A DNA stretch of 64,000 nucleotides, taken from contig NZ_CP048222.1 in the NCBI RefSeq assembly GCF_010119975.1, positions 7,726,501-7,790,500 of the forward strand, given 5' to 3'. The position numbers and the translations under genes were made by a program. A model generated the notes under the pieces. The model was not told the DNA's origin. It saw nothing but the letters and a program-made list of their open reading frames with translations, and searched no databases. How positions within the stretch are numbered: position 1 is the first letter of the stretch; every line of letters begins with the position of its first letter. This stretch comes from Rhodocytophaga rosea (GTDB lineage Bacteria; Bacteroidota; Bacteroidia; Cytophagales; 172606-1). Positions 1,048 to 63,975 of the stretch are shown piece after piece.

Positions 1048-3234
1048 TTATGAAGTAAGCATATTGAAAATAGCTTTCTCTTCGGCTGGAAACTGCTCAG
1101 CCCATAGACTGGAATATTTTTTTCCATACAGCTTTAACTGTTGATGTGTTCCTTCCTCTGTTACTTTGCCAGACTCCAATACAATAATCTTATCAGCATG
1201 CATGATGCTGCTCAAGCGGTGCGAAATAATAATAACGGTTTTGTGGGCAGCCCTTAATTTCTCAATGGTTTTCTGAACATACTTTTCTGAAAGGGTATCT
1301 AAGGATGAAGTGGCTTCATCCATAATCAGTATTTCCGGCTCCCGGTATAAGGCTCTGGCAATGGCTATTCTTTGTCTCTGGCCTCCTGATAAGTTAGCTC
1401 CATTCTCTCCCAATTGAGAAAGAAATCCATTAGGTAGTTTTTCTACAAATTGGGTAATACCCAGATCATGGCAAATTCTTAAAATCCGTTTCATATCCGG
1501 CTGAAAAACACCTACTGCAATATTTTCGATAACCGTGCCTGAGAACAAATCAACCTTTTGGGGAACCACACTTACTATTTTTCTTAAACTCTGGTGGCTG
1601 ATGTGTTTAATAGAATGGTTGGCAATACTAATGTTTCCTCCGGTAAGCGGATACATGTTCTGCAGCAAGGACATCAGCGTTGATTTTCCTGAACCACTTT
1701 CTCCCACAATCGCAGTCACTTTTCCTGCTGGAATGCTAAGGGTGAGATTTTCAAAAATAGCAGCCCTGGAACCATAGCGGAAGCAAACATCACTAAACTG
1801 AATATCGCCACTCATCTCCGGGGTCATCTCTATTTTATTTTCCCTTTCCTCTCTTTCCAGGTCCATGATCTCAAACAGCCGGTCAGCGGCTATGAGGGCT
1901 TCCTGAATGGTTTTATTCATGCCTATTAATGAAGTCGCTGGTCCGGTCAGATAGCCAAGCAAGGCATAAAAAGATAATAATTCACCGGCTGTTAATAGGT
2001 TTTCCAGGACAAAGAAAGCACCTGCCCAGAGCAGAATAATGGTAAACAGCCTGGAAATGAATTCAGAAGCCTGGGAAGCAAACAAGCTGTTCAGATTAGA
2101 GCCATATACATTTCTTAGCAAAGCAATAAACTTGGTTTCTGTTTTCAGGTTGGCATAGGATTCTACACCAAATCTTTTGATGGTACCTGCCGCATTTATT
2201 GACTCTACTAACTGTGATTCGAGTTCTGCGGTATGCTCCATCACTTTGCGTTGCTGCTTGCGGTTAATAGCATTAACTATAAAATACACCAGGGTATAGA
2301 GCGGCAGCACACACAGGGTAATTAAGGCCAGCTTCCAGTAATAGGAAAACATCAGCGCAAAGGAAAAAACCACAATACACACATTCACGATCAGATTCAG
2401 GGCTACATCATTGATAAAGAAACGGATTTTTACCGCATCATTCACCCGTGAAATAATTTCTCCGGTGCGCCTGGTATCAAAAAAATGTTGAGGCAATGTC
2501 AGCAGGTGTTTATAATAGCCAAGAATCAACCCTGCGTCAATCTGCTGACCGGTTTTTAAAGCGAAAATTCCCTTAAATGATCCGATGAAAACCTGTATCA
2601 GTAACAAAACAATCATGAGTACCCCCATCAGGTTCATCAGATTATAGTTGCCACTAGGGAGCACATGGTCTACAATCTTCTGTACATACAAAGACGTAGA
2701 AAGCCCCAGTACCGTATAGATCAGCGCTCCGACCAATGCCTGTATAAGTATACTTTTATGGGGACGTATCAGAGAATAAAAGCGGGAGAAGATAGTTTTT
2801 TTCTCATTGCCTTTTTTAAAATCAGAACCCGGCATTAAAATGACCAGCACCCCTGACCATTGTTTCTTAAACTCCTCATGCAGCAGATTATGTTTTTTTC
2901 CATCGGCCGGGTCCATGACAATTATATATTGTTTGGTAACCCCATAGATCACCACAAAATGGTGTAAGCCCCCTTGCATCACTACATGTGCGATGGCAGG
3001 AGTAGGAATTTTGAACAGGCTCTCAAAAGTACCTTTTACCCCTTTTGCCGTAAATCCCAGCCCGGTAGCTGCCTGAACAAGCCCTAATACATTGGTTCCT
3101 TTGGTATCGGTTGAAGTGTATTGCCGGACTCTGGCAATGGGGAGCCGGAGTTTATAATGTGCCGCAATAGAGGTAAGACAAGCAGCACCACAATCGGTAA
3201 TGTCATGCTGCTTTATTTTTACTATGTTTTTCAT
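1048..3234 (-). CDS. Peptidase-containing ABC transporter (C39 peptidase, bacteriocin/RiPP exporter)
   Basis: Start chosen at the ATG at 3234 (728 aa), because the protein then begins MKNIVKIKQHDITDCGAAC, the canonical C39 N-terminus; the longer open frame would overlap the upstream gene. The C39 domain (about 1-130) has oxyanion Gln9, catalytic Cys15, His92 and Asp108. A six-helix membrane domain follows (about 160-450), then an ATPase domain with Walker A GESGSGKST, signature LSGGQRQRIAIARAL, Walker B ILIMDEATSSLD and the switch His in IIISHRLSS. Members cleave leader peptides after a Gly-Gly motif and export the product across the inner membrane. The adaptor gene lies 28 bp upstream and a GG-leader peptide gene lies just beyond it, giving a complete processing/export cassette. 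Confidence 0.95.
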   Translation of the reverse strand: MKNIVKIKQHDITDCGAACLTSIAAHYKLRLPIARVRQYTSTDTKGTNVLGLVQAATGLGFTAKGVKGTFESLFKIPTPAIAHVVMQGGLHHFVVIYGVTKQYIIVMDPADGKKHNLLHEEFKKQWSGVLVILMPGSDFKKGNEKKTIFSRFYSLIRPHKSILIQALVGALIYTVLGLSTSLYVQKIVDHVLPSGNYNLMNLMGVLMIVLLLIQVFIGSFKGIFALKTGQQIDAGLILGYYKHLLTLPQHFFDTRRTGEIISRVNDAVKIRFFINDVALNLIVNVCIVVFSFALMFSYYWKLALITLCVLPLYTLVYFIVNAINRKQQRKVMEHTAELESQLVESINAAGTIKRFGVESYANLKTETKFIALLRNVYGSNLNSLFASQASEFISRLFTIILLWAGAFFVLENLLTAGELLSFYALLGYLTGPATSLIGMNKTIQEALIAADRLFEIMDLEREERENKIEMTPEMSGDIQFSDVCFRYGSRAAIFENLTLSIPAGKVTAIVGESGSGKSTLMSLLQNMYPLTGGNISIANHSIKHISHQSLRKIVSVVPQKVDLFSGTVIENIAVGVFQPDMKRILRICHDLGITQFVEKLPNGFLSQLGENGANLSGGQRQRIAIARALYREPEILIMDEATSSLDTLSEKYVQKTIEKLRAAHKTVIIISHRLSSIMHADKIIVLESGKVTEEGTHQQLKLYGKKYSSLWAEQFPAEEKAIFNMLTS

Positions 3235-3262
3235 TGGATAATCTGATGGGAAGGAGAGAAAT

Positions 3263-4432
3263 TTAGGATTGGGAAGCAACGAGTGGATTGATCCAGTCAT
3301 TGGCCTGATCAAAAATAAGCTGGTATAAGCTTCTTTCGGTAAGAATATATCTGGCCCGTACCGTCATGCCTTTTTTTAATTTTCCCTGATAGCCATTTTT
3401 CAACTGGAGGAAATCTTTATCCAGTTTACATTTTATTTTAAACACCGGCTGATCGTTAATCATTTCTATATCGGAGGCTACCTGCATTACTTTTCCCGAC
3501 ACCAATCCCCATTCATTATAATTAAAGGCATCTACCTGAAAATAGACCTTCATATCTTGTTTGATAAAACCTATATCTTTGGGAGGAATGTAGCATTCTA
3601 CTAGTATATCAGAATCTGGTGAAACGATTCCAAGCACCTGGTTACTGTGAATAGTACTTCCAGGGGAAATACCATAAAATTGCTGCAAAGTGCCTGCAAC
3701 AGGTGATTTAATGGTACAAAGTTCTTTTTCTTTCAGGAGTTGTTTTTCTTCTGCTTGTAGTTCTGAAAGCAGTCGGGTATTAGCAGTTAGGTCCGATTGC
3801 CACCCGCTCAGCTGTCCCTGAATGGCCGACAGATAATAAGCAAGCGCATTCTCATATTCAAACACTTTGTTTTCGTATTCCCGCTGGGCGATCACTTTCT
3901 CGTTATATAGTTTTTTATCAATAAGTAATTCCTTTGCTTTTCTGTTTTTAGTCTGACTGCTCTCCGAAAGGCGGTAGAGGAACTGGTTATATTGCTGGCG
4001 GTACAGGGCAGAAGAAATCCCTTTTACCTGAAAGATGGAGGCGGTATCTATCCTTACTAGTTTTTGCAAATCCTGGATATAGGTCTGTTTTTCGAGTTGT
4101 AGTTCCCCATTGAGTTTGAGTTTGCTATCCAGGGTTTCTGATCCAACCATTAACAAAGGCTGTCCTTGAGCAATGTTCTGATTATCTTTTACAAATACCT
4201 CTTGTACCTTACCGGATAATAAAGATTTTACCTCATTTTTCTCAGCCGTTGGCCGGATAATTCCCGGACTTTGCATAGACACATCTACTGTAATAAAAGG
4301 CAGGGCAACAATAATACAAAGGATGGAAAGTAAAATAGAGGAATAAATGATCTGGCTTCTGGTAGAAATTTCGGCGATATAGGTTTCAGCACTATTCTCA
4401 ATAATCTGAGGAGGATAAATTTGATTCTGCAT
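3263..4432 (-). CDS. HlyD-family secretion adaptor (periplasmic membrane fusion protein)
   Basis: Start set at the ATG at 4432 (389 aa); a TTG two codons earlier is less likely. One N-terminal membrane helix (about residues 30-55) is followed by a biotinyl-lipoyl half-motif (SLLSGKVQEVFVKDNQNIAQG), a long coiled-coil hairpin (about 100-240), a second lipoyl half (CTIKSPVAGTLQQF) and a C-terminal beta domain ending at the extreme C-terminus. Such proteins couple an inner-membrane ABC exporter to an outer-membrane channel. It is cotranscribed with the C39 exporter downstream (28-bp gap). No outer-membrane channel gene accompanies it here, so a TolC-type protein from elsewhere would be needed. 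Confidence 0.93.
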   Translation of the reverse strand: MQNQIYPPQIIENSAETYIAEISTRSQIIYSSILLSILCIIVALPFITVDVSMQSPGIIRPTAEKNEVKSLLSGKVQEVFVKDNQNIAQGQPLLMVGSETLDSKLKLNGELQLEKQTYIQDLQKLVRIDTASIFQVKGISSALYRQQYNQFLYRLSESSQTKNRKAKELLIDKKLYNEKVIAQREYENKVFEYENALAYYLSAIQGQLSGWQSDLTANTRLLSELQAEEKQLLKEKELCTIKSPVAGTLQQFYGISPGSTIHSNQVLGIVSPDSDILVECYIPPKDIGFIKQDMKVYFQVDAFNYNEWGLVSGKVMQVASDIEMINDQPVFKIKCKLDKDFLQLKNGYQGKLKKGMTVRARYILTERSLYQLIFDQANDWINPLVASQS

Positions 4433-4726
4433 ATTCAAGAAAGCAACTCAACTGTTTTTGAAATTTCTGTTATCTAAAAGAGTTATGAGAGGATAGGTAG
4501 CTACAGACAACAATCGCTCTTTATAAATATCTTTTAAATTGACATATGTTTGGAAAAATTAGGATGCGTATGGTTTGTTAAACTAAGAAGGAGGTAGAAA
4601 ATCTGCCTCCTTGATGTATAAATTTGTATTTTTTGTTTAAAAAAAAGTAAGGAGCGTTTTCTCTCCTTACTTCATGTATCAATAAACAAATGGCTACGCT
4701 AAAGGTGGCATTTGGCAGTTTAAAAA
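4433..4726. other. Leader region between the GG-peptide gene and the adaptor gene; two hairpins
   Basis: No convincing gene. It holds the terminator at 4639-4670 and a second hairpin whose arms 4588-4597 and 4603-4612 pair over 10 bp with one G-U. The second hairpin lacks a clean T run and may be a processing or attenuation site between the abundant peptide transcript and the exporter genes. Confidence 0.5.
4639..4670 (-). terminator. Rho-independent terminator after the GG-leader peptide gene
   Basis: On the minus strand an exact 8-bp stem (GTAAGGAG/CTCCTTAC, 4647-4654 with 4663-4670) is followed by eight T residues (4639-4646). It lies about 57 nt past the peptide stop, so the peptide mRNA probably ends here with partial read-through into the exporter genes. 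Confidence 0.85.
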
Positions 4727-17500: not shown

Positions 17501-20500
17501 ATGCCATTACTTTTACCTTCTTCTTCAACAATCATCAGAGGAAAATCCAATCAATTTGAATTACTTGGGAGCTGCCTTAAAATTAAAGGCGTTGTCAGCT
17601 TAATTTTTCTTTGCTTTTTCTCAACCTATGCACAGCCTACTCTGGTTAAGGATATCAATACTGACCCGGCATATATTTACAATAATTCTTTATCGCCCGA
17701 AAATTTAACTGCTGTAAATGGAGTAGTATATTTCACCGGCAGCAGTGAAAAAACTGGCCGCGAACTCTGGCGAAGCGATGGTACAGCGGCTGGTACTTAC
17801 CAGGTAAAGGATATTAATCCCGGTATAAGCAGTTCTAATCCAAGCTATTTACTGAATGTAAATGGCACCTTGTTCTTTATCGTTAATTATCGTTTATATT
17901 ATGACTCTGATGAAAGCGGACCTAATCCGGACGCAAGTAAAGGAAGCGGATTTGAGCTATGGAAAAGCGATGGAACTGAAGCAGGCACTATTAAAGTAGG
18001 CGATTTTTCCCTAAAGAATAGGCAATTTGGATGGCTTTACAATATACCTGTCCGTTTTATAAATGTAAATGGAACCCTGTTTTTTACAGCCAATAATTCT
18101 TTTGATGACTATACTCTCTATAAAAGTGATGGTACCATGGCGGGTACTCAGCCTGTTACACAAGTAAAGGTAAGTGACAATTATTATTCTACATATGCTT
18201 TTTTAGAGAGTGCTGGCAAGTATATATATTATAATCAATTAGATCCTGATTCTGAAGATGGACATGAATCTTTATGGCGAACAGATGGCACTCCTGCAGG
18301 TACCATCCGCTTACTTGGACCATCCACAGAGCAAAGCTATTCCTTATTAAGGCAAATATCCAATATAAATGGCACCCTGTTTTTCAGTGCCCCTGGCCCC
18401 TTGGGACAAGAACTCTGGAAGAGCGATGGCACCCCGGAAGGCACTGTGCTTGTAAAAGATATAGTACCTGGCCCGGAAAGTTCTGATCCTATATTCTCGG
18501 GCAGATCAGCTAATTTCCTATACTTTTCAACCAATAATGATACCAGCCTATGGAAATCGGATGGCACTTCGCAAGGTACTGTACTGGTAAAAAATGGATG
18601 GGTTTATCCTACTGTCTTGCCCGGTCCAGGTGAACAGGTTTATTTGTTATTCTCTGATGCTACCTATGGCCGGGAACTCTGGAAATCGGATGGCACCGCG
18701 CAAGGTACCATCCTGTTAAAAGATATTAACCCAGGCGCTACCTCATCCGGCATAAGTGATTTGGTATACATGAATGGTCTGCTGTATTTTACAGCCAATG
18801 ATGGAGTAAATGGCCGGGCCTTATGGAAAAGTGATGGCACTGCTGCCGGAACCCTGATGGTAAAAGACATTAACCCAGGCACTACAAGCTATGCTATTGC
18901 TGGTCTGACTATAGCTCAAAATACTTTATTTTTCAGCGGGCAAACCACACAGGATAAATCTGACCTGTGGAAGAGCGATGGCACTGCGGCAGGCACCGTT
19001 TTGGTAAAGGAACTAAACGAAACAACCGATAGAACCCAAAGTTCTGCTCCTACTCATTTTACTAATGTAAATGGCTTGCTTTATTTTACGACCAGTATCA
19101 CAAATGGCTTTGAGTTATGGAAAAGCGATGGAACTGAAGCAGGCACAATTTTTATCAAACGCAATGGAGGTTCAGGCTATAAGCAAACAGCCAGAGTAAT
19201 GGACCACATTAATAATATGGTGTATTACAGAGTAGATAATTACGATGCAAAGGACAATTTATTAAACATACAAGTCTGGGAAACTGATGGAAGTAATGCC
19301 GGAACCACACTCATTAAAACCATAGATGGCCTTACTAATTATTACTACCAAGGCCAGAACATCATCACTACTTTAAATAATACGATATATTTTTTTATTC
19401 ACAATCAGTTATGGAAAACTGATGGCACAGCGGCAGGAACCCTGCTTCTTAAAAAAGATTTAACCGGTAATAATCATGACAATCTCACTGTAGTAAATAA
19501 CACCTTGTTTTTTCGCAGTGGTCCCTCTATATGGAAAAGCGATGGGTCTGCGGCAGGCACAGTAGAAGTAAAAAATGTAGGCAACTATGGCAGTGCAAAA
19601 TTTACCGCCTATAAAAATCTGCTTTATTTTATTACCCCATCTGGGTTGTGGAACAGTGATGGAACAGCAAAAGGTACAAAAATAGTGAGTGATCTGATGG
19701 GAACAGGTACATTACGAGATATGATACTTACAGATAGCATTTTTTATTTATTAACCCATCGTGAATTATGGAAAAGTGATGGAACACAAGCGGGTACTGT
19801 AATGATAAAAGATCTAAATAACAACGATGTAGATAATCAATTCAATGGTTTAACCTATGTAAATGGTATCCTTTATTTTACTTATTACAATTGGAATGGC
19901 GTTTCTCATGCACTCTGGCGAAGCAATGGCACTGCTACAGGTACACAGCGAATGTTGACACTAGATAATACCCTTTATGGGGTTCAAGCCTTAACAGGTG
20001 TTAATAATACATTGTTGTTTATTACTGATGATGGAGTGCAGTATCAGTTGTGGAAGAGTAATGGTACCACTGAAACCACGGAGCAAGTAACTATACCTGA
20101 CCTGTCTGTAAAGCTTTTCAATAGAGCCATTGTAAATAATGTAATATATTTTTCTGCCGATAATGGACAATTAGGCTTTGAGTTGTGGAAATATAATCCC
20201 ACTACTTGCGTAGCTGTAAATAAAAATCTGCTTGTCCAGGGGAACACTGTTTGCATGAGTGAAAATGGAAAAATCACACTCAAAGCCTCTCAATCAGGTA
20301 TCTCTTATCAGGCCTATTTTCACAATTCTCCGGTAGGCAACCCTGTACAAGGAGGAGGAGATATTACTCTCACCATTCCAACTGTGAGTCTGAGTGTGGG
20401 CAATAACACATTTACCATCAAAGCCAGTGGCTGTACCCTTACTGAACTTACTACCAAAGCGACTATCTCTGTGTACAATTGCCCTACTATTTCTTGTAGT

Positions 20501-21352
20501 AACTCTACTCAAAGCAGCCTTGTGGTTAATCCATCGAGTGGAGGCACTTTAAGCGGAACTAGTTTGTATCTGAAAACCATTCCGGGGGCTTCTTCCTATA
20601 CCCTGCAGGTGAGTAGCTCAGCTAACTTTACCACAGGAGTGATCACTAAAACTACCTCAAGCCGCTTAAGCACCGGCACCTATTATGCTTCCTTCCCTGA
20701 ACTAGCGCTCAATCAAAAATACTATGTCAGGGTCTATACCAACCTTGGTTTATGCTGGGGATCGGTCACTTCCTTTACCACGGCTTCCGCAGCCGGCAGT
20801 GCTTATGTAACGAATCCATCTGATGGAGGCACTACCACCGGCACTTCCCTGTATCTGAACACCGTATCCGGGGCTACTACCTACACCTTGCAAGTGAGTA
20901 CCTCGGCAGATTTTACAAGCAATGTGCTTACCAGAGCTACCGTAAGCCGACTCAGCACCGGTACCTATTATGCCCTTTTCCCTGAACTGATCCTTAATCA
21001 GAAGTATTATGTGAGAGTGAAAACCAACCTGTCAGAACTGTGGGGCAGAACCACTTCCTTTACAAGGGTGAGTGCAGTAGCCAGACTAGCGGCTGAAGCG
21101 TTAACAGAAAGCCTGGAAAACAGAGTGAGTGTTTATCCCAATCCTTTTAAAGATAAGCTTACCATTGTTAGTGCACAAGCAGGCAAGCTCTATATCACTA
21201 TAGCAGATAACTTAGGCAGAATAGTCCATCAAACCACCACCCAAGGAGCACAAACCGAGCTTAACCTGGCTCATCTCAAACAAGGGGTGTATGTGGTGAA
21301 AGTTTCTACCGAAGATGGACAGACTCTAGTATTGAGAGTGGTCAAACAATAA
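17501..21352 (+). CDS. Large ELWxxDGT-repeat protein with Fn3-like domains and T9SS sorting domain
   Basis: 1283 aa. The N-terminus has a late signal peptide (IKGVVSLIFLCFFSTYAQ, ending about residue 45). About 17 ELWKSDGT-type repeats plus a degenerate last one (FELWKYNPTT) fill about 50-905; each unit has a W-x-S-D-G-T..A-G-T turn and a preceding V-N-G-x-L-Y-F strand, as in beta-propellers. An Ig-like linker (about 905-1005), two Fn3-like repeats and a type-A T9SS sorting domain (VYPNPFKDKLTI to the C-terminus) follow. It lacks the PA14 domain found in both neighbours. It is predicted to be secreted or anchored on the cell surface by the type IX system; ligand unknown. It has its own promoter region and terminator, so it is a separate unit of the tandem array. 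Confidence 0.92.
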   Translation: MPLLLPSSSTIIRGKSNQFELLGSCLKIKGVVSLIFLCFFSTYAQPTLVKDINTDPAYIYNNSLSPENLTAVNGVVYFTGSSEKTGRELWRSDGTAAGTYQVKDINPGISSSNPSYLLNVNGTLFFIVNYRLYYDSDESGPNPDASKGSGFELWKSDGTEAGTIKVGDFSLKNRQFGWLYNIPVRFINVNGTLFFTANNSFDDYTLYKSDGTMAGTQPVTQVKVSDNYYSTYAFLESAGKYIYYNQLDPDSEDGHESLWRTDGTPAGTIRLLGPSTEQSYSLLRQISNINGTLFFSAPGPLGQELWKSDGTPEGTVLVKDIVPGPESSDPIFSGRSANFLYFSTNNDTSLWKSDGTSQGTVLVKNGWVYPTVLPGPGEQVYLLFSDATYGRELWKSDGTAQGTILLKDINPGATSSGISDLVYMNGLLYFTANDGVNGRALWKSDGTAAGTLMVKDINPGTTSYAIAGLTIAQNTLFFSGQTTQDKSDLWKSDGTAAGTVLVKELNETTDRTQSSAPTHFTNVNGLLYFTTSITNGFELWKSDGTEAGTIFIKRNGGSGYKQTARVMDHINNMVYYRVDNYDAKDNLLNIQVWETDGSNAGTTLIKTIDGLTNYYYQGQNIITTLNNTIYFFIHNQLWKTDGTAAGTLLLKKDLTGNNHDNLTVVNNTLFFRSGPSIWKSDGSAAGTVEVKNVGNYGSAKFTAYKNLLYFITPSGLWNSDGTAKGTKIVSDLMGTGTLRDMILTDSIFYLLTHRELWKSDGTQAGTVMIKDLNNNDVDNQFNGLTYVNGILYFTYYNWNGVSHALWRSNGTATGTQRMLTLDNTLYGVQALTGVNNTLLFITDDGVQYQLWKSNGTTETTEQVTIPDLSVKLFNRAIVNNVIYFSADNGQLGFELWKYNPTTCVAVNKNLLVQGNTVCMSENGKITLKASQSGISYQAYFHNSPVGNPVQGGGDITLTIPTVSLSVGNNTFTIKASGCTLTELTTKATISVYNCPTISCSNSTQSSLVVNPSSGGTLSGTSLYLKTIPGASSYTLQVSSSANFTTGVITKTTSSRLSTGTYYASFPELALNQKYYVRVYTNLGLCWGSVTSFTTASAAGSAYVTNPSDGGTTTGTSLYLNTVSGATTYTLQVSTSADFTSNVLTRATVSRLSTGTYYALFPELILNQKYYVRVKTNLSELWGRTTSFTRVSAVARLAAEALTESLENRVSVYPNPFKDKLTIVSAQAGKLYITIADNLGRIVHQTTTQGAQTELNLAHLKQGVYVVKVSTEDGQTLVLRVVKQ
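20861..21288 (+). repeat. 428-bp block identical to 24144-24571
   Basis: By eye the second and third ELWxxDGT genes are identical over 428 bp covering the second Fn3-like repeat and nearly the whole T9SS sorting domain, then diverge immediately (C/T at 20860/24143; G/A at 21289/24572). The first gene has many differences in the same region, so this points to recent gene conversion rather than the original duplication. Confidence 0.88.
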
Positions 21353-57544: not shown

Positions 57545-58459
57545 ATGTCTAAAGAGGAATCAGCCCAAAATAAAGTCATTCTTCGCCGGAGGGAAAGCCA
57601 GCACCAGGAAGCGCAGCAAAATAAGCAGCAAGTAAGCTATGGTAACGAGAATGCTACATTCCATACCAATGGATACGGTGCGGAGGTAATGCAGGCGATG
57701 TATGGATATAAGCAGGGAATTCCTCTGCAAACCAAACCTGCTGACCAGACAACTCAGATTCATTCAACCCCTTCTCCTGTGATTCAGCGGGAAGGCTGGA
57801 AAGACTTGGATGTAATAGGTGGGCTTCTCCATCAGGGGGCTAAATTCAATTTTTCGGTGCAACTCCCCAAAACCCTGCTTGATCATTACCGGGATGGAAA
57901 TGGAACTGAATTCGGGCTTACTTCTCTCGGTATGACTCAATGTAATGCCCTGATTGATTTTGGAAACGATAAACGTTCGCCTCAATTTCTCAGGTTTGTG
58001 AATCAGATGGGAGCAGAGATTGCAAGAAATGCAGGAAGCGATCCGACCCGTTTGAAAGAATCTATCGAAAGCGATGTAAGCTTTAGTATGCTGGGGGCAT
58101 GTAATACCAGTGGCACGCTCGGTAACTTTACAGTATATGCGTGGGGCAAACTCAAAGTATGGAATCCTGATGCAGATGGAACCAATGCTGACTGGAGTTT
58201 TGATGGGTCTATGTGGTGGTATGACCTATGGGATTTTGACCACAGGGCTGCTTCCGGAAAAGGTGAACCCGGACGAACTTCTACTGGCTCCTGGCGGACA
58301 GATGTAGGAAGCCTGCTGGTGGGAACTCCTTTCGAAATTAAGTCTGCAACTGTTGCGGTGCATCAGGCGCGGGCAGAAGCCAAAGGTGGAAATAATTATG
58401 CCAAGTGGGAAGGCAATCCGGAAGGTAAACTGATGCCAGTCGTTTCCGGAATTCTTTAA
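57545..58459 (+). CDS. Unknown protein with a toxin-like C-terminal domain (candidate secreted effector)
   Basis: 304 aa without a signal peptide. Residues 1-80 are polar, Gln-rich and probably disordered; an IQRE motif at 80-83 resembles the VQRE/IQRK motifs that precede effector cores in DUF4157-type, contractile-injection-associated proteins of Bacteroidota. The C-terminal part has DVSFSMLGACNTSGTLGNFT and then WWYDLWDFDHR (224-234), followed by a Gly/Arg loop and GTPFEI. The D-x-(Y/W)-D-F...H-R pattern recalls colicin-M-like lipid II phosphatase toxins, but the His spacing differs. Function is therefore an inference. No immunity gene was recognised next to it. Confidence 0.55.
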   Translation: MSKEESAQNKVILRRRESQHQEAQQNKQQVSYGNENATFHTNGYGAEVMQAMYGYKQGIPLQTKPADQTTQIHSTPSPVIQREGWKDLDVIGGLLHQGAKFNFSVQLPKTLLDHYRDGNGTEFGLTSLGMTQCNALIDFGNDKRSPQFLRFVNQMGAEIARNAGSDPTRLKESIESDVSFSMLGACNTSGTLGNFTVYAWGKLKVWNPDADGTNADWSFDGSMWWYDLWDFDHRAASGKGEPGRTSTGSWRTDVGSLLVGTPFEIKSATVAVHQARAEAKGGNNYAKWEGNPEGKLMPVVSGIL

Positions 58460-58701: not shown

Positions 58702-59871
58702 ATGATTCACCCAACCCCTTTCCTTTCTGCCTTCTTTACAAAAACTGTTGGTCTGGCTTTTTTTATCTTAGGTATCATTTGTATTACGGCAAACCCTGCT
58801 TCAAACATGACTTTGTTTGACGATGTGTACGGACCTAAAGACAGGCAGCCATTTTCAGAAGTGGAACAAGTGCAAGCTGCTGCGCCAGTGCATCTTAAAA
58901 AGAGCCGTGACCGGGATATGTCCAAAGGCTACTGGATTAGCCATAAAACAAAAATGTATTACTGCATTGAATTTAAAGAAGACCTTGACTCCAGGAGCTG
59001 GAACATGAGCAGATGCTTTGAACATGCCCTATTTACCAAAAAGCAGCCAGATGTATATCAATTGACCCGTGAAGCAGGTACACTTACATTAAACGGAAAA
59101 CTGGAAACACCGGAAAGCGACGGAAGTTATGAGTTTACAGAAGATGCCGCTTTTAAAAATTACCTGGCAGACAATGCCATCATAAGTCAAGATGAGAATT
59201 TACTGTTTCACCTTTTTATGGGAGACATGACAAAAGACTATGTAGCCTATCTGAAGAAAACCTATACTCAGCTAGACGGCGACCGTCTGCTGGAACTGGC
59301 CATTCATGGTGTTACCCAGAGGCGCTTTCAGGAATATGTAGGCTTATTTGAGAAATACAGCAATAAAATGCCCTCCATCCAGGAGGTTATAGAAGCCAGA
59401 ATTCATGGGCTCACTAGTGAATACATTGAGGATATCAGATCCGGTGGTTTTACCAATCTGAGTATGAAAAAAATGATGGAAGCCAGAATTCATGGCGTAA
59501 ATTCCGCCTATATCGAAAGTTTAAATAAAGCTGGCTTTACTAACCTGAGCATAGATAAAATTCTGGAAGCAAAAATACACGGCATTGATCCGGTAAGCAT
59601 CAAACAAATTGAGTCGCTGGGATATACCAATCTGGGCCTGGATAAAATTATTGAGGTAAAAATTCATGGCGTGAATTCAACCTATATTCAGGAATTGAAA
59701 GAGGCTGGCTTTACCAATCTTACAATCAATAAATTGATAGAAGCTAAAATTCATGGCGTGAATGCCGACTTTATTGCAGAAGCCAAAAACAAAGGCTATA
59801 CCTACGAAAGTATTAATAACTACATCGACCTGAAAATCCACGGATTTGACAGAAAACGCAACAGGGATTAA
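58702..59871 (+). CDS. Protein with 29-residue IHG repeats, one N-terminal membrane helix
   Basis: 389 aa. One hydrophobic helix at about 13-30 (VGLAFFILGIICITA) anchors or exports the protein. Residues 40-200 are a charged domain of unknown type. From 201 the tripeptide IHG recurs at 201, 234, 263, 292, 321, 350 and 379, the last five gaps each being 29 residues, with consensus (K/R)IHGVNSxYIxxLxxxGFTNLxxxKxIEA. Similar repeats occur after the peptidase part of BlaR1/M56-type proteins; here they stand without a peptidase. Likely a helical solenoid for protein contact. Confidence 0.75.
   Translation: MIHPTPFLSAFFTKTVGLAFFILGIICITANPASNMTLFDDVYGPKDRQPFSEVEQVQAAAPVHLKKSRDRDMSKGYWISHKTKMYYCIEFKEDLDSRSWNMSRCFEHALFTKKQPDVYQLTREAGTLTLNGKLETPESDGSYEFTEDAAFKNYLADNAIISQDENLLFHLFMGDMTKDYVAYLKKTYTQLDGDRLLELAIHGVTQRRFQEYVGLFEKYSNKMPSIQEVIEARIHGLTSEYIEDIRSGGFTNLSMKKMMEARIHGVNSAYIESLNKAGFTNLSIDKILEAKIHGIDPVSIKQIESLGYTNLGLDKIIEVKIHGVNSTYIQELKEAGFTNLTINKLIEAKIHGVNADFIAEAKNKGYTYESINNYIDLKIHGFDRKRNRD
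59302..59844 (+). repeat. Tandem 87-bp (29-codon) coding repeats
   Basis: Seven IHG-starting units, five gaps of exactly 29 codons after a first gap of 33, read in frame within the gene at 58702-59871. Units differ at the DNA level, so the array is old and under protein-level selection. Confidence 0.85.
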
Positions 59872-60078: not shown

Positions 60079-62520
60079 ATGAAAAAACTTTATCTCCTAC
60101 TTTCTTTGTGTCTCCTGTTGCTCCCCTCACAGGTAGGGTTTGCCCAGAATACAGGCAAACTTTCAGGGGTGGTGCAGGATGATACCGGGATTGCGCTACC
60201 TTTTGCTACCGTTGCTATTCTGCAAACGGCAGATAATAAAATGGTAACCGGAGCGGTAACAGACGATGCTGGAAAGTTTGAGTTAAAAACACCTGCTGCC
60301 GGAAAATATAAGTTACGGGTAAGTGTAATTGGATATGCCCAGCTCGATACACCGCCCTTTGACGTAAGCGGAACAGAGTTTTCAAAGAATTTTGGTAAAC
60401 TTTCCCTCAAGCAAGATACCAAAGTATTGCAGGAAGTAACCGTACAATCTATGCGGCCTACCATTACGAGTCATGCTGATAAACTGGTGGTGAGTGTAGA
60501 AGGAACCGCTTTAGCTGCCGGAAATACGGCTTATGAAGTACTGGCCAAATCTCCCGGCGTTTTTATCGACCAGGATGGTAATATCCAGCTGAATGGAAAA
60601 GGCGGCATCCGGATCATGATTGATGGCAAACTCACGTATCTAACTGGCAAGGAATTACAGAATTTCCTGCAAGGGATGTCTGCCGAAAACCTGAAAGACA
60701 TTGAAATCATCACCAATCCTTCTTCCAAATACGATGCAGAAGGAACAGCAGGTATTCTGAATATCAATCTGAAAAAAAATACCCTGACCGGCATGAATGG
60801 AAGTGTAAATATAGGCGGGCAATATAACGGCATGACAAGTTACTCATCCGGAGCTAATATCAATTATAAAAAAGGCAAGTGGAGTTCATTTGTGAATGCC
60901 GATCTGTCCAGGCGTGTTTTTTTCCGAAATGCTGCCTTCAACAGGGAATTTAACACCCCTGAAACCAGTGTCAGGTTCAATATGAATGGCCGCCAGGAAG
61001 ATATCCGGCTGGCACCTTCTGTGCGGTTGGGAACAGATTATGATATTTCAGATAAACACAGTGTAGGTATTAGTGCCAATTTATATTACCAGACTTTTGA
61101 CAGCCAGTTTAAAACATCTACTTTTCAGGGAAATGGTGATCCTGCCTTAGATTCACTGATTACAGCCACTAACCTGATAGATGGCGAGTTTTCAAACAGT
61201 ACCTTTAATGCCCATTACATAGGCAAACTCGATACAACGGGTACTACCTTAACTGGCGATATCGATTATGTCCGGATAACTAATAATGCAGATTCCAGGT
61301 TTATTAACCAGTACGCTCAAATCAATGGCGATGCCCTTCCCCGGCTGGTGTTGTTAAGCAGTGATAACCCAAGCAATTTTGATATATTTTCAGCCAAAAC
61401 AGATTTTGCAAAACCATTTTCTAAGGATACTAAACTGGAACTGGGGGCTAAAGCCAGTCATGTAGTTTCGGATAATAACCTGATGTTTTTTACCGACGCC
61501 GAAAACCTGCGCATTCCCGATGTAAGGCGTACTTCTCATTTTATTTACAAGGAAAATATTTATGCCGGGTATGTAAATTTTAATACCAAGCTCGCCAAGA
61601 AATGGAGTTTGCAAAGTGGCTTACGGGCGGAACAGACCGTAGGAAAAGGCAATCTGCTCACGACAGGTACAGTTTTTACCCGTAATTACCTGGACTGGTT
61701 TCCAAGTATATTCCTGCTCAATAACATTACTAAGAATTACCAGATCGCCTACAAATACAGCCGTCGGATCAGCCGGCCGAGATATGAGGCTATGAACCCT
61801 TTTGTATTCTACCTCGATCCCTATACCTATGCCCAGGGAAATCCTAATTTACGTCCGGCCTATACCAATTCTTTTGAACTGACCCAGACCCTGAAAAACA
61901 GCTATATCCTTACCCTTGGCTATTCGCTGACAAAAAACTTTATTGCAGAAATTCCCGAGCAGTTTACTGAAACCAGGACTACCATTTTCCAGCAGACCAA
62001 CGTGAAGATGTTCAAAAATATGAATGCGAACCTGGTGATTCCTGTTAAAGTGGCTAAAAAATGGGAAATCAATAATAACCTGACAGCTGCCTATCAAGAT
62101 TATAGTGTAGAACAACAGGGAAATACGCTCCGCAACCAGCAGTTCTTTTTCTATGCGCAGTCAACGAGTACCATACAATTACCCAAAAAGCTTAGCTTAG
62201 AACTGAATGGTGTATACCAGGGGCCGCTTGCCTATGGCTTGTACAGAATTTCAGGAATGTGGTGGGTAGATGCCGGCCTGAAACGTTCCTTCATGGAGGA
62301 CAAACTGGAATTAGCTCTGAATGTTACCGATATATTTAAAACCAGGCAAGTAGTAGGAGCCGCCAATTACAATGGCAATGTAAATGAGTTTGACCAGTAT
62401 TTTGGCTCACGGGGTATTCGCCTGAACCTGCGCTACCGCTTTACCAAGGGTGCTTCATTTGAAATGAAAAAACGCAATACCAATCTGGATGAACTAAACC
62501 GGGCTGGAGGTAATAATTAA
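60079..62520 (+). CDS. Outer-membrane beta-barrel receptor (carboxypeptidase-regulatory domain, plug, OMP_b-brl_3 type)
   Basis: 813 aa. Signal peptide (MKKLYLLLSLCLLLLPSQVG, then FAQ), carboxypeptidase-regulatory-like domain (about 27-115, LSGVVQDDTGIALPFATVAI), plug-like domain (about 120-230, YEVLAKSPGVFIDQDGNI, IRIMIDGKLTYLTGKEL, AEGTAGILNINLKKN) and a beta-barrel to the end (GSRGIRLNLRYRF). Same architecture as the receptor at 5549. It lies 137 bp upstream of the putative RiPP precursor on the same strand, with a terminator in between; receptors of this kind often accompany secreted or imported metallophore-like peptides, so a link is possible but unproven. Confidence 0.9.
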   Translation: MKKLYLLLSLCLLLLPSQVGFAQNTGKLSGVVQDDTGIALPFATVAILQTADNKMVTGAVTDDAGKFELKTPAAGKYKLRVSVIGYAQLDTPPFDVSGTEFSKNFGKLSLKQDTKVLQEVTVQSMRPTITSHADKLVVSVEGTALAAGNTAYEVLAKSPGVFIDQDGNIQLNGKGGIRIMIDGKLTYLTGKELQNFLQGMSAENLKDIEIITNPSSKYDAEGTAGILNINLKKNTLTGMNGSVNIGGQYNGMTSYSSGANINYKKGKWSSFVNADLSRRVFFRNAAFNREFNTPETSVRFNMNGRQEDIRLAPSVRLGTDYDISDKHSVGISANLYYQTFDSQFKTSTFQGNGDPALDSLITATNLIDGEFSNSTFNAHYIGKLDTTGTTLTGDIDYVRITNNADSRFINQYAQINGDALPRLVLLSSDNPSNFDIFSAKTDFAKPFSKDTKLELGAKASHVVSDNNLMFFTDAENLRIPDVRRTSHFIYKENIYAGYVNFNTKLAKKWSLQSGLRAEQTVGKGNLLTTGTVFTRNYLDWFPSIFLLNNITKNYQIAYKYSRRISRPRYEAMNPFVFYLDPYTYAQGNPNLRPAYTNSFELTQTLKNSYILTLGYSLTKNFIAEIPEQFTETRTTIFQQTNVKMFKNMNANLVIPVKVAKKWEINNNLTAAYQDYSVEQQGNTLRNQQFFFYAQSTSTIQLPKKLSLELNGVYQGPLAYGLYRISGMWWVDAGLKRSFMEDKLELALNVTDIFKTRQVVGAANYNGNVNEFDQYFGSRGIRLNLRYRFTKGASFEMKKRNTNLDELNRAGGNN

Positions 62521-62657: not shown

Positions 62658-62825
62658 ATGAAACTCTCAAAAACGCTGCTTGGCGCCATTCTGCTGGGCA
62701 TTGCCCTTGAAACCACATCTTGTTTAACCGCTGAAGAAGCTCCACAGCCAGAGTCAGAACAAGGATCCAAAAATGAACCAGAAGGTACTATACCTGACAG
62801 TTGTCCGGGTTGTGGCATGGGTTAA
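62658..62825 (+). CDS. Putative MNIO-modified precursor peptide with lipoprotein-like leader, 55 aa
   Basis: A 55-codon frame from ATG 62658 to TAA 62823-62825. It starts with a signal peptide of lipoprotein type (MKLSKTLLGAILLGIALETT, then SC at residues 21-22), continues with a polar Glu/Pro-rich linker and ends DSCPGCGMG. The terminal Cys-X-X-Cys-Gly-Met-Gly motif resembles substrates of DUF692/MNIO enzymes such as the chr system of Chryseobacterium (recalled; not checked). The MNIO gene starts 25 bp downstream on the same strand. The two Cys are the expected modification sites. Leader type suggests the product might be exported by Sec and even lipidated. The gene is too short for usual gene finders. 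Confidence 0.75.
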   Translation: MKLSKTLLGAILLGIALETTSCLTAEEAPQPESEQGSKNEPEGTIPDSCPGCGMG

Positions 62826-62850
62826 ATTGTTCACTATACTTCTATAACTA

Positions 62851-63975
62851 TTGGCTAAGATTCTATCATCGGTTGCCTGTAATCTGGATGTTCATATACT
62901 TTCGGCCAGCATTCCTTTGCTGGAAGAGTCCCAGGTAGATGCCATTGAATGGTCATTTGACACCCTGTTTAATATCTGGCATACCCCAGGCTGGTTTGCC
63001 AGGCTGCTTACTGCCTTCAGCAAAGAAGAAAGGCTGATTGGCCATGGCGTATTTTTCTCCCTTTTGTCAGGCAAATGGTCTAAGGAGCAGTATCAGTGGC
63101 TTTCGCAGCTAAAACAGTTATCTGCAGAATTTCACTTTGACCATATTACCGAACATTTTGGCTTTATGACCGGACAGAGTTTTCATCAGGGAGCTCCTAT
63201 GTGCGTACCGTATTCACCTGCTACTTTAGCTATTGGCAGGGATCGTCTGGCCAGAATACAGGAGGCTTGCTCTTGTCCGGTTGGGCTGGAAAATCTGGCG
63301 TTTGCTGCTTCACTGGAACAAGTAAAACAGCAGGGAGAATTTCTCGAAAGGCTGATTGAACCGGTGAACGGCTTTATTATACTTGATCTGCATAACCTGT
63401 TTTGCCAGATGCATAATTTCTTCATGGATTTTGAGCAACTTCTTTCATCTTATCCGCTGGAACGGGTTAGAGAAATTCATATTTCGGGAGGCAGCTGGGA
63501 AAAATCAGGGAAACAATCTGAACGGATCATCCGCAGGGATACCCATGATCAGGCTGTACCACCCGAAGTATTTCATCTATTAGAAAAAACTATACCGGTA
63601 TGTCCCAATCTGAAATATGTGGTGCTGGAACAATTAGGTATTGCCTTAAAAACGCAGGAAAGTAAAGCTGCTTTTTATCAGAATTTTGTGCAAATGAAAC
63701 AAATTGTGGAGGATAACAATCAAACGATTGCAAACTCTTCAGAAAACCCATTTATCCCACCATCCATTACTCTCCCGGAAACTTTTGTAGAAAACCAGGA
63801 ACTCTATGCACAACAACGGGAATTGTCGGAAATTTTAGAAACCTCTTCTTCCTATGAAGAGACAAACAGGCTATTGAAAGCATCCAGTTTAGCGCATACT
63901 GCCTGGAATATCGAAAGCTGGGACCCGGCCATGATTGAAACTGCCATTCATATTGCCCGGAAATGGAAGAAATAG
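62851..63975 (+). CDS. DUF692-family multinuclear non-heme iron oxidase (MNIO), RiPP-modifying
   Basis: 374 aa with a TTG start at 62851; an in-frame TAA at 62845 excludes a longer form and the next Met (106) is inside the core. TIM-barrel ligands expected for the family are visible: His65 (IGHGVFFSL), His98/Glu101/His102 (DHITEHFGF), Glu147-Asn148 (VGLENLAFA), Asp179 and His181 (ILDLHNLF), His210 (EIHISGG), Asp230 and His232 (DTHDQAVPP) and Glu260 (VVLEQLG). Known members (MbnB, TglH, ChrH) oxidise peptide cysteines. A C-terminal helical extension of about 85 residues (290-374) goes beyond the typical ~280-aa enzyme and might act as a partner or peptide-binding domain. The end of the window hides any further pathway genes. 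Confidence 0.88.
   Translation: MAKILSSVACNLDVHILSASIPLLEESQVDAIEWSFDTLFNIWHTPGWFARLLTAFSKEERLIGHGVFFSLLSGKWSKEQYQWLSQLKQLSAEFHFDHITEHFGFMTGQSFHQGAPMCVPYSPATLAIGRDRLARIQEACSCPVGLENLAFAASLEQVKQQGEFLERLIEPVNGFIILDLHNLFCQMHNFFMDFEQLLSSYPLERVREIHISGGSWEKSGKQSERIIRRDTHDQAVPPEVFHLLEKTIPVCPNLKYVVLEQLGIALKTQESKAAFYQNFVQMKQIVEDNNQTIANSSENPFIPPSITLPETFVENQELYAQQRELSEILETSSSYEETNRLLKASSLAHTAWNIESWDPAMIETAIHIARKWKK

What the first reader, a model, noticed from the sequence alone, without database searches (positions are those of the whole stretch)
62658..63975. Candidate RiPP pathway: CPGCGMG precursor beside a DUF692/MNIO enzyme
A 55-aa gene encoding a lipoprotein-type leader and a C-terminal Cys-Pro-Gly-Cys-Gly-Met-Gly tail sits 25 bp upstream of a full-length MNIO enzyme with all expected metal ligands. 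MNIO enzymes rework cysteines in short peptides. The combination of a lipobox leader and a Cys-X-X-Cys tail would give a modified, possibly surface-tethered peptide, an unusual product class.
Basis: partly seen in the sequence, partly recalled or inferred. Interest (0 to 1): 0.88.

Follow-up and report, generated by a model that had tools for sequence, protein, structure and literature searches.

The report
Known-type lipopeptide RiPP gene pair
Two neighbouring bacterial genes look set to make a short lipid-anchored peptide whose cysteine-rich tail is remodelled by an iron enzyme; this matches a peptide class published in 2025, although its unusually conserved signal sequence is still unexplained.

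Summary
Window 62658-62825 encodes a 55-aa peptide with a lipoprotein-type signal, Cys22 and a CPGCGMG tail. It lies 25 bp upstream of a 374-aa MNIO/DUF692 enzyme (62851-63975, TTG start) that keeps all nine iron-ligand positions of TglH.

The peptide passes NCBIfam NF050125 "chryseobasin-related MNIO class RiPP peptide" (72 bits; cut-off 40). The layout equals dybA-dybH of Dyadobacter, published as DAG-RiPPs (PMC12636315): the MNIO oxidises CPxCGxG (-4 Da, macrocycle plus hydantoin) and the lipoprotein pathway lipidates the internal Cys.

One result goes against the published account. The signal peptide is far more conserved than those of two control lipoproteins in the same genomes, and its motif was found on these precursors in 12 of 13 genome-wide pattern hits. 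The leader may have a job beyond generic export; this is untested. Chemistry, location and function here are inferred.

The parts
62658..62825 (+). 55-aa precursor peptide, chryseobasin-related (DybA type)
   Evidence: NF050125 72.3 bits, cut-off 40, model positions 1-56 of 56
62658..62720 (+). signal/leader region, residues 1-21, with the family motif MK[LI][SP]Kx[LV]L[GQS]A[IV]xx[GA]
   Evidence: more conserved than two control lipoprotein signals and held in register from the N-terminus; 12 of 13 genome-wide hits of a DNA pattern for it are such precursors
62721..62723 (+). Cys22, predicted lipid-bearing N-terminus of a 34-aa mature peptide
   Evidence: a Cys at 20-27 is present in 88 of 89 peptides examined, the window's included; lipidation shown for DybA in PMC12636315
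62802..62822 (+). C-terminal core CPGCGMG, predicted MNIO target
   Evidence: 14 of 88 peptides, the window's included, end CPGCGMG and 57 end CPACGMG; DybH acts on CPACGMG and HymH on CPGCGLG in PMC12636315
62851..63975 (+). MNIO (DUF692) enzyme, 374 aa, on the DybH side of the ChrH subfamily, with a three-helix C-terminal extension (residues 316-371) after the barrel and a linker
   Evidence: PF05114 2.3e-32 over residues 43-260; NF050165 393 bits over 12-373; tree; nine Fe ligands; AlphaFold2 model pLDDT 87.4, pTM 0.89

Best explanation
This is a minimal two-gene cassette for a lipidated, MNIO-modified peptide (dyb-type DAG-RiPP, chryseobasin relative). The peptide is made in the cytosol. 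The MNIO, using two or three irons and O2 and no partner protein, removes four hydrogens from the C-terminal CPGCGMG, closing a macrocycle between Cys49 and former Cys52 and a hydantoin with the following backbone, without S-methylation (-4 Da). The signal then sends the peptide through Sec; Lgt, LspA and Lnt lipidate and trim it at Cys22, leaving a 34-residue lipopeptide that is probably moved to the outer membrane, possibly its outer face or vesicles. Shown here: gene pair, motif, ligands, family membership, conserved association. Taken from published homologues: the reaction, the product and the lipidation. Inferred: location. The authors of PMC12636315 state that the role is unknown; my best guess, with low confidence, is a membrane-anchored thiol-bearing ring acting in the envelope on metals or on a neighbour's cell wall.
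For: NF050125 match over cut-off. MNIO aligns to NF050165 MNIO_ChrH over residues 12-373; 58% identity to the D. crusticola DSM 16708 locus L100 and 40% to two ChrH-type enzymes. Nine iron ligands kept. The model shows the barrel followed by a linker and three C-terminal helices, the extra domain described for this subfamily. 79 of 80 relatives have the upstream peptide with CxxCG[ML]G (76, 3 more). The quick tree places it on the Bacteroidota side of a starred (98) branch away from ChrH; DybH lies on that side, and the characterised DybH, ChsH and HymH all give the -4 Da product (PMC12636315; ChsH and HymH are not in my tree). The largest neighbour cluster other than the MNIO, SusC-like, occurs in 20 of 81 loci.
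Against: No chemistry was measured for this pair. The MNIO scores 393 bits against NF050165, under its 600-bit equivalog cut-off, so it is not ChrH itself. The lipobox is relaxed. The one other genome searched from the same genus lacks the enzyme and the peptide, so the trait is dispensable. One of the 80 relatives (L070) shows no peptide upstream. The tree was the quick kind with long outgroup branches. A fold search of the model could not be run.
Confidence: 0.88

Rival explanations
1. The enzyme gives the S-methylated (+10 Da) chryseobasin product like ChrH rather than the unmethylated one.
For: Same type of core motif; ChrH is the best-scoring NCBIfam model; ArlH from Archangium makes a mixture (PMC12636315).
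Against: The tree puts it on the far side of a starred branch from two ChrH-type enzymes; 40% identity to those versus 58% to the DybH locus; DybH, ChsH and HymH gave the -4 Da product.
Confidence: 0.08
2. The peptide is an ordinary small lipoprotein and the MNIO next door acts on something else.
For: No other conserved gene; lipoproteins judged not to be RiPPs are also found in or beside MNIO clusters (PMC12636315 Fig. 6 legend).
Against: 79 of 80 relatives keep the pair, and in 66 of the 76 found by the first pattern the nearest peptide frame ends within 50 bp of the enzyme match; core pairwise identity is 88.0% while the linker falls to 18.2%.
Confidence: 0.03
3. On function, compatible with the best explanation: the product handles metal ions, like bufferins or oxazolins, rather than acting on other cells or as a structural part.
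For: Bufferins, two large MNIO-modified families, act in copper stress (PMC12452194 abstract); the DybA product keeps a free thiol (PMC12636315); the 34-aa mature peptide has seven acidic residues and one Lys by inspection.
Against: None of the 10 clusters other than the MNIO found in six or more of 81 loci was read as metal-related (named by reading, not scanned); the DybA product has no UV band of the bufferin or methanobactin kind (PMC12636315); I saw no copper link for chryseobasins in the passages read.
Confidence: 0.3

Closest known systems
dyb cluster of Dyadobacter crusticola DSM 16708 (DybA/DybH), DAG-RiPP; PMC12636315
   Same: Precursor just upstream of the MNIO; SPII-type signal with an internal Cys; C-terminal CPxCGMG; MNIO with C-terminal helical extension; no obvious partner gene. 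The locus itself was recovered as L100 (58% identity).
   Different: Core is CPGCGMG instead of CPACGMG; TTG start for the MNIO here; the upstream barrel gene belongs to a cluster seen in only 6 of 81 loci.
HymA/HymH of Hymenobacter gelipurpurascens; PMC12636315
   Same: Core CPGCGLG with Gly in the ring, -4 Da product shown; in my tree the window enzyme sits in a set (support 94, not starred) with Hymenobacteraceae enzymes.
   Different: Met instead of Leu in the core; H. gelipurpurascens itself is not among my loci.
chr cluster of Chryseobacterium (ChrA/ChrH/ChrI), chryseobasin; PMC10214503
   Same: CPACGMG-type tail and an MNIO alignable over nearly its whole length (NF050165).
   Different: ChrA has a signal-peptidase-I type signal and no internal Cys, the cluster carries ChrI, ChrE and ChrP, and the product is S-methylated. 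The window pair shows none of these genes next to it and misses the ChrH cut-off (393 of 600 bits).
Bufferins (BufA/BufB) and oxazolins (HvfA/HvfB)
   Same: MNIO-modified exported peptides, some predicted or shown to be lipidated.
   Different: Other core motifs and DUF2063 partners; the window enzyme scores 93 bits against BufB (cut-off 310) and 78 against HvfB (cut-off 360).

Membership tests
DybA-type chryseobasin-related precursor (NF050125) | score over the curated cut-off | tested here: met
   72.3 bits against 40, whole model
DybA-type chryseobasin-related precursor (NF050125) | C-terminal CPxCGxG | tested here: met
   CPGCGMG as the last seven residues
DybA-type chryseobasin-related precursor (NF050125) | internal Cys preceded by a hydrophobic stretch (lipobox) | tested here: met
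   Cys22 after 21 residues, T-T-S-C, a relaxed form; SignalP was not available
DybH-type MNIO | MNIO with the Fe ligands | tested here: met
   nine of nine positions
DybH-type MNIO | C-terminal helical extension after the barrel, joined by a linker | tested here: met
   AlphaFold2 model: helices 316-331, 335-344 and 359-371 after an irregular stretch from 291; sequence aligns to the ChrH model to residue 373. No fold comparison could be run
DybH-type MNIO | no obvious partner-protein gene nearby | tested here: met
   next gene downstream is DUF218; no neighbour cluster in more than 20 of 81 loci; ORFs further downstream were read, not scanned
DybH-type MNIO | -4 Da unmethylated macrocycle/hydantoin product | not testable with these tools
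   needs co-expression and mass spectrometry
DAG-RiPP | acylated, diacylglyceryl N-terminal Cys on the modified peptide | not testable with these tools
   needs lipopeptide isolation
Chryseobasin sensu stricto (ChrA/ChrH) | ChrH equivalog cut-off (NF050165, 600 bits) | tested here: not met
   393 bits; two genomes of the phylum sample score 707 and 686
Chryseobasin sensu stricto (ChrA/ChrH) | ChrI, ChrE and ChrP genes in the cluster | tested here: not met
   downstream ORFs listed are not these by reading; only the first was scanned with Pfam (DUF218)
Bufferin / oxazolin | BufB or HvfB equivalog score | tested here: not met
   93 of 310 and 78 of 360 bits; no EGKCG motif in the peptide

The most novel reading that the evidence does not exclude
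The 'signal peptide' of these lipopeptides is a true, family-specific leader with a second job. It is held in register from the N-terminus (K5, L8, A10, G14) while its distance to the lipid Cys varies. It is nearly as conserved as the modifying enzyme, and its motif was hardly found on other genes of the same genomes. It might dock the MNIO so that modification wins the race against export, hand the peptide to a dedicated route, or be released by signal peptidase as a second peptide signal. This runs against the published view that recognition of the C-terminal motif alone relaxes selection on the N-terminus.
Probability: 0.35. Interest if true: 0.55.

Novelty: new member of a known kind. Interest (0 to 1): 0.32.

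Why it matters
The gene pair adds one more genome, a single 8.98-Mb contig, to the DAG-RiPP class, whose biological role its discoverers state is unknown. The comparative result is the more useful part: the leader is constrained nearly as tightly as the enzyme and looks nearly specific to these precursors. That makes a directly testable question of why a peptide whose C-terminal seven residues suffice for modification in E. coli keeps a special N-terminus. The two-gene, patchily distributed layout, with one copy on a Hymenobacter plasmid, also suggests a transferable module.

Tried and rejected
Conserved neighbours as a clue to function: ORFs of 90 aa or more in up to 10 kb on each side of 81 MNIO loci were clustered. 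After the MNIO itself (80 of 81 loci) the largest clusters were SusC-like (20 loci), sigma factor (13) and SusD-like (10), named by reading the sequences, on either side and either strand, so they look like general Bacteroidota neighbours. The TonB-type barrel gene upstream of the window pair (60079-62520) belongs to a cluster seen in 6 of 81 loci and is not a fixed partner.

A dedicated promoter or terminator: the sigma-70 scan gave 6 sites against 3.7 expected and no terminator-like site; the Bacteroidota -7 pattern TAnnTTTG (recalled) has no match between the upstream gene and the pair. Nothing firm.

Surface-export signal: the strict C-X-K-(D/E)2 form is met by 14 of 88 peptides and not by the window's own, so surface location stays a suggestion.

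Errors made and replaced: one search read minus-strand loci from the genome search on the wrong strand and used 14 genomes; one search replaces it. The GldJ control misplaced the lipid Cys in two of its 16 proteins; repairs one (G452) and still miscalls the other (G442). GldJ was used in 16 of 30 genomes, those with long matches; only 1 of 30 genomes had a match over the family's cut-off, so these are GldJ-like proteins.

A literature search for signal-peptide-derived pheromones with four terms found nothing and was not pursued. Fold search of the model: machine busy each time.

Full report
What is there. The window lies at 7,726,501-7,790,500 of a single 8,983,451-base contig. At its right end, 62658-62825 encodes a 55-aa peptide and, after 25 bp, 62851-63975 a 374-aa MNIO enzyme starting with TTG. 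The peptide has a charged start, a hydrophobic stretch, Cys22 in T-T-S-C, an acidic Pro/Glu-rich linker and the tail CPGCGMG. A PF05114 search of the genome finds this one MNIO, and a DNA pattern for CP[A/G]CGMG-stop one site.

Family tests. The peptide passes NCBIfam NF050125, 'chryseobasin-related MNIO class RiPP peptide', with 72.3 bits against a cut-off of 40. The enzyme matches NF050165 MNIO_ChrH with 393 bits (cut-off 600) from residue 12 to 373 and Pfam PF05114 over 43-260. The two solved relatives found by sequence at E 0.01 or better are TglH (8hci) and 3bww. The nine iron ligands reported for TglH (PMC10880893, passages seen) all have their counterpart in the window enzyme: E147, D179, N182, H210, D230, H232 and E260 by alignment to TglH, H65 and H102 through 3bww. 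All are invariant in 29 aligned enzymes. The AlphaFold2 model (27 sequences, mean pLDDT 87.4, pTM 0.89) shows the strand-helix order of a barrel to about residue 290, an irregular stretch, and three helices at 316-331, 335-344 and 359-371, as expected from the C-terminal helical bundle described for the ChrH subfamily. A fold search could not be run.

What is known. Ayikpoe et al. 2023 (PMC10214503; abstract, one section and passages seen) showed that ChrH remodels CPACGMG. Chen et al. 2025 (PMC12636315, preprint; abstract, Results, Discussion and the first part of the legends read) described the present type: Bacteroidota pairs of precursor and MNIO without an obvious partner gene, a third Cys that is the lipidation site, a -4 Da product for DybA, ChsA and HymA (HymA ends in CPGCGLG; the macrocycle/hydantoin structure was solved for DybA), and triacylation of DybA in E. 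coli. They call such products DAG-RiPPs and state that the function is unclear. The finding is therefore a new member of a known kind.

Conserved association. One scan of genome contigs with an alignment of four family enzymes gave 266 relatives, of which the best 80 were kept, including D. crusticola DSM 16708 itself (L100); the tree labels all 80 Bacteroidota. A same-strand upstream frame ending in CPxCG plus up to six residues was found in 76 of 80. In 66 of these 76 the nearest one ends within 50 bp of the start of the enzyme match, which is not always the true start codon; the other ten lie 65 to 636 bp away. Three of the remaining four have Pro-less variants CLSCGMG, CQGCGMG and CIACGMG; one (L070) shows none. 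Eight loci carry two or three precursors. Of 89 peptides including the window's, 88 have a Cys at positions 20-27; the exception, in Taibaiella chishuiensis (L068), looks like a signal-peptidase-I type. Of the 88, 75 fit my loose lipobox pattern. Tails of the 88: CPACGMG 57, CPGCGMG 14, CPACGLG 6, CPGCGLG 5, CPVCGMG 2, four others once each.

Distribution. In an even sample of 395 genomes of the phylum, seven have an NF050125 match at E 0.001, three of them over the cut-off; three sub-threshold hits (G112, G290, G368) were not examined. Six have an NF050165 match above 300 bits. Of those six, G000, G055 and G101 have the over-cut-off peptide adjacent, G298 has a sub-threshold one, G244 has a CPACGMG peptide found by reading the locus, and G083 (one TGA inside the match) shows none in its short locus. 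In the window's own family 3 of 8 genomes have the peptide, the window's among them, and the one other genome of the genus has neither gene. In the quick tree the two copies in family member G006 fall with Spirosoma fluviale (support 86) inside a set that also holds Dyadobacter, while the window and G004 (the same contig as L022, by its length and position) fall in a set with Hymenobacteraceae (94); neither is starred. A plasmid of Hymenobacter volaticus carries the pair beside replication and ParA genes; its precursor is not in the feature table shown, which is known to be incomplete. Patchy presence, weakly supported family-incongruent placement and one plasmid copy fit a transferable module (inference).

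No partner genes seen. Beyond 64 kb the next gene is a DUF218 protein, followed by genes that read as general metabolism and signalling (not scanned). Clustering of neighbours in 81 loci found no family other than the enzyme in more than 20 loci.

The leader. The peptides were picked by their tail and position, not by their N-terminus, yet residues 1-20 follow MK[LI][SP]Kx[LV]L[GQS]A[IV]xx[GA]: L8 in 86, A10 in 84, G14 in 77 and K5 in 74 of 88. The start Met was chosen by a rule that favours M[KNEH][LIVFP], so positions 2-3 are biased; later ones are not. In 29 genomes (32 loci named, 31 held, 30 with a BamD locus, one without a readable start) mean pairwise identity is 50.7% for the precursor signal, 25.0% for the BamD signal, 18.2% for the precursor linker, 88.0% for the core, 60.8% for the MNIO and 38.8% for mature BamD; the precursor signal is the more alike in 371 of 406 pairs.

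With GldJ-like proteins in 16 genomes the signals are 30.5% alike against 54.9% for the precursors (100 of 120 pairs). Among pairs with 52-70% identity in the mature protein, GldJ signals are 27.4% alike (41 pairs), while for MNIO pairs of 52-70% the precursor signals are 52.7% alike (108 pairs) (which repairs; there the GldJ values were 27.2% and 23.3%).

For 115 pairs with MNIO 70-80% identical, uncorrected pN/pS is 0.27 for the signal, 0.24 for the MNIO and 0.51 for the linker; for 41 pairs at 80-90% it is 0.12, 0.13 and 0.26. Against a pure protein-level reading: for the 12 closest pairs signal and linker do not differ (0.15 each), and synonymous differences are also fewer in the signal than in the linker in all three bins (0.61 against 0.76, 0.43 against 0.76, 0.20 against 0.53), so part of the constraint may sit in the RNA around the start codon, or the linker alignment may inflate its counts.

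One sequence per genus (21, the window's included) gives 47.2% identity over positions 4-20 counted from the N-terminus but 23.4% counted back from the Cys, against 11.7% for shuffled signals. A degenerate DNA pattern for the motif occurs once in the window's genome, on this gene. In 31 other genomes it occurs 12 times in 12 genomes: 11 are the precursors and one a 510-aa lipoprotein-like frame that reads like an M13 peptidase. The pattern is strict, so 19 genomes have no match although they hold the peptide. The two Chryseobacterium-type precursors have another signal (MKIPA[IL]LMASLLAV).

Reading of the leader result. A generic Sec/SPII signal should drift like the controls. [quoted passage not shown] I do not claim that the conservation is unnoticed: their Fig. 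1c logo was not visible to me and supplements were not read.

Location. Two or more acidic residues at +3 to +7 occur in 13 of 29 precursors and 0 of 29 BamD controls; that BamD faces the periplasm is recalled. The C. canimorsus export signal is C-X-K-(D/E)2-X (PMC5080379, passages); 14 of 88 precursors meet C-X-K-(D/E)2, 4 of the 29 against 0 of 29 BamD. The window peptide (C-L-T-A-E-E) does not. The terms 'surface' and 'export signal' were not found in the main text of PMC12636315. Outer-surface display is therefore suggested for part of the family, not shown.

Mechanism and confidence. The most likely course is translation, cytosolic four-electron oxidation of CPGCGMG by the MNIO alone, Sec export, lipidation at Cys22, and transfer to the outer membrane. 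Gene content and motif are shown here, reaction and lipidation are carried over from DybA/DybH, and location and role are inferred. Confidence 0.88 for the class, much lower for any role.

Noticed in passing
window 1048-4438 (-): A peptidase-C39 ABC exporter (Pfam PF03412, PF00664, PF00005) beside an HlyD-type adaptor (PF13437): a bacteriocin/RiPP-style export pair about 58 kb from the finding, with no visible link to it.
   Followed up: partly
window 58702-59871 (+): 389-aa protein with seven IHG motifs, the first two 33 residues apart and the rest 29 apart, in repeats of the type EARIHGVNSAYIESLNKAGFTNLS; only a sub-cut-off Pfam hit (SAM_DprA).
   Followed up: partly
window 57545-58459 (+): 304-aa protein with no Pfam match at 0.01.
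   Followed up: no
window 17501-21352 (+): 1,283-aa protein with a type IX secretion sorting tail (Por_Secre_tail) as its only Pfam match at 0.01.
   Followed up: no
L057, L064, L098: Precursors with the conserved Pro of CPxCGxG replaced (CLSCGMG, CQGCGMG, CIACGMG), each still upstream of an MNIO match.
   Followed up: partly
L068 8990-9382: An extra precursor-like frame of Taibaiella chishuiensis that keeps the LLQAI leader but lacks the lipobox Cys and ends CPPCGRG.
   Followed up: no
L191 (NZ_CP095062.1 265231-276343): Plasmid-borne copy of the pair beside replication and ParA genes in Hymenobacter volaticus; precursor frame at L191:4755-4955 not in the feature table shown.
   Followed up: partly
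plasmid search: 56 of 204 plasmid records with a match are Escherichia; those listed are distant DUF692 relatives (about 25% identity), several with a 'DNA-binding domain-containing protein' under the match.
   Followed up: no
L010 and L011: G006 holds two similar copies of the pair on two contigs, each with a similar gene upstream that reads like a serine hydrolase; the assembly is listed with contamination 7, so they may be strain variants.
   Followed up: no
L107 (G083:C41): A ChrH-like MNIO frame with one TGA inside the match and no CxxCG-ending peptide seen in the short locus.
   Followed up: no
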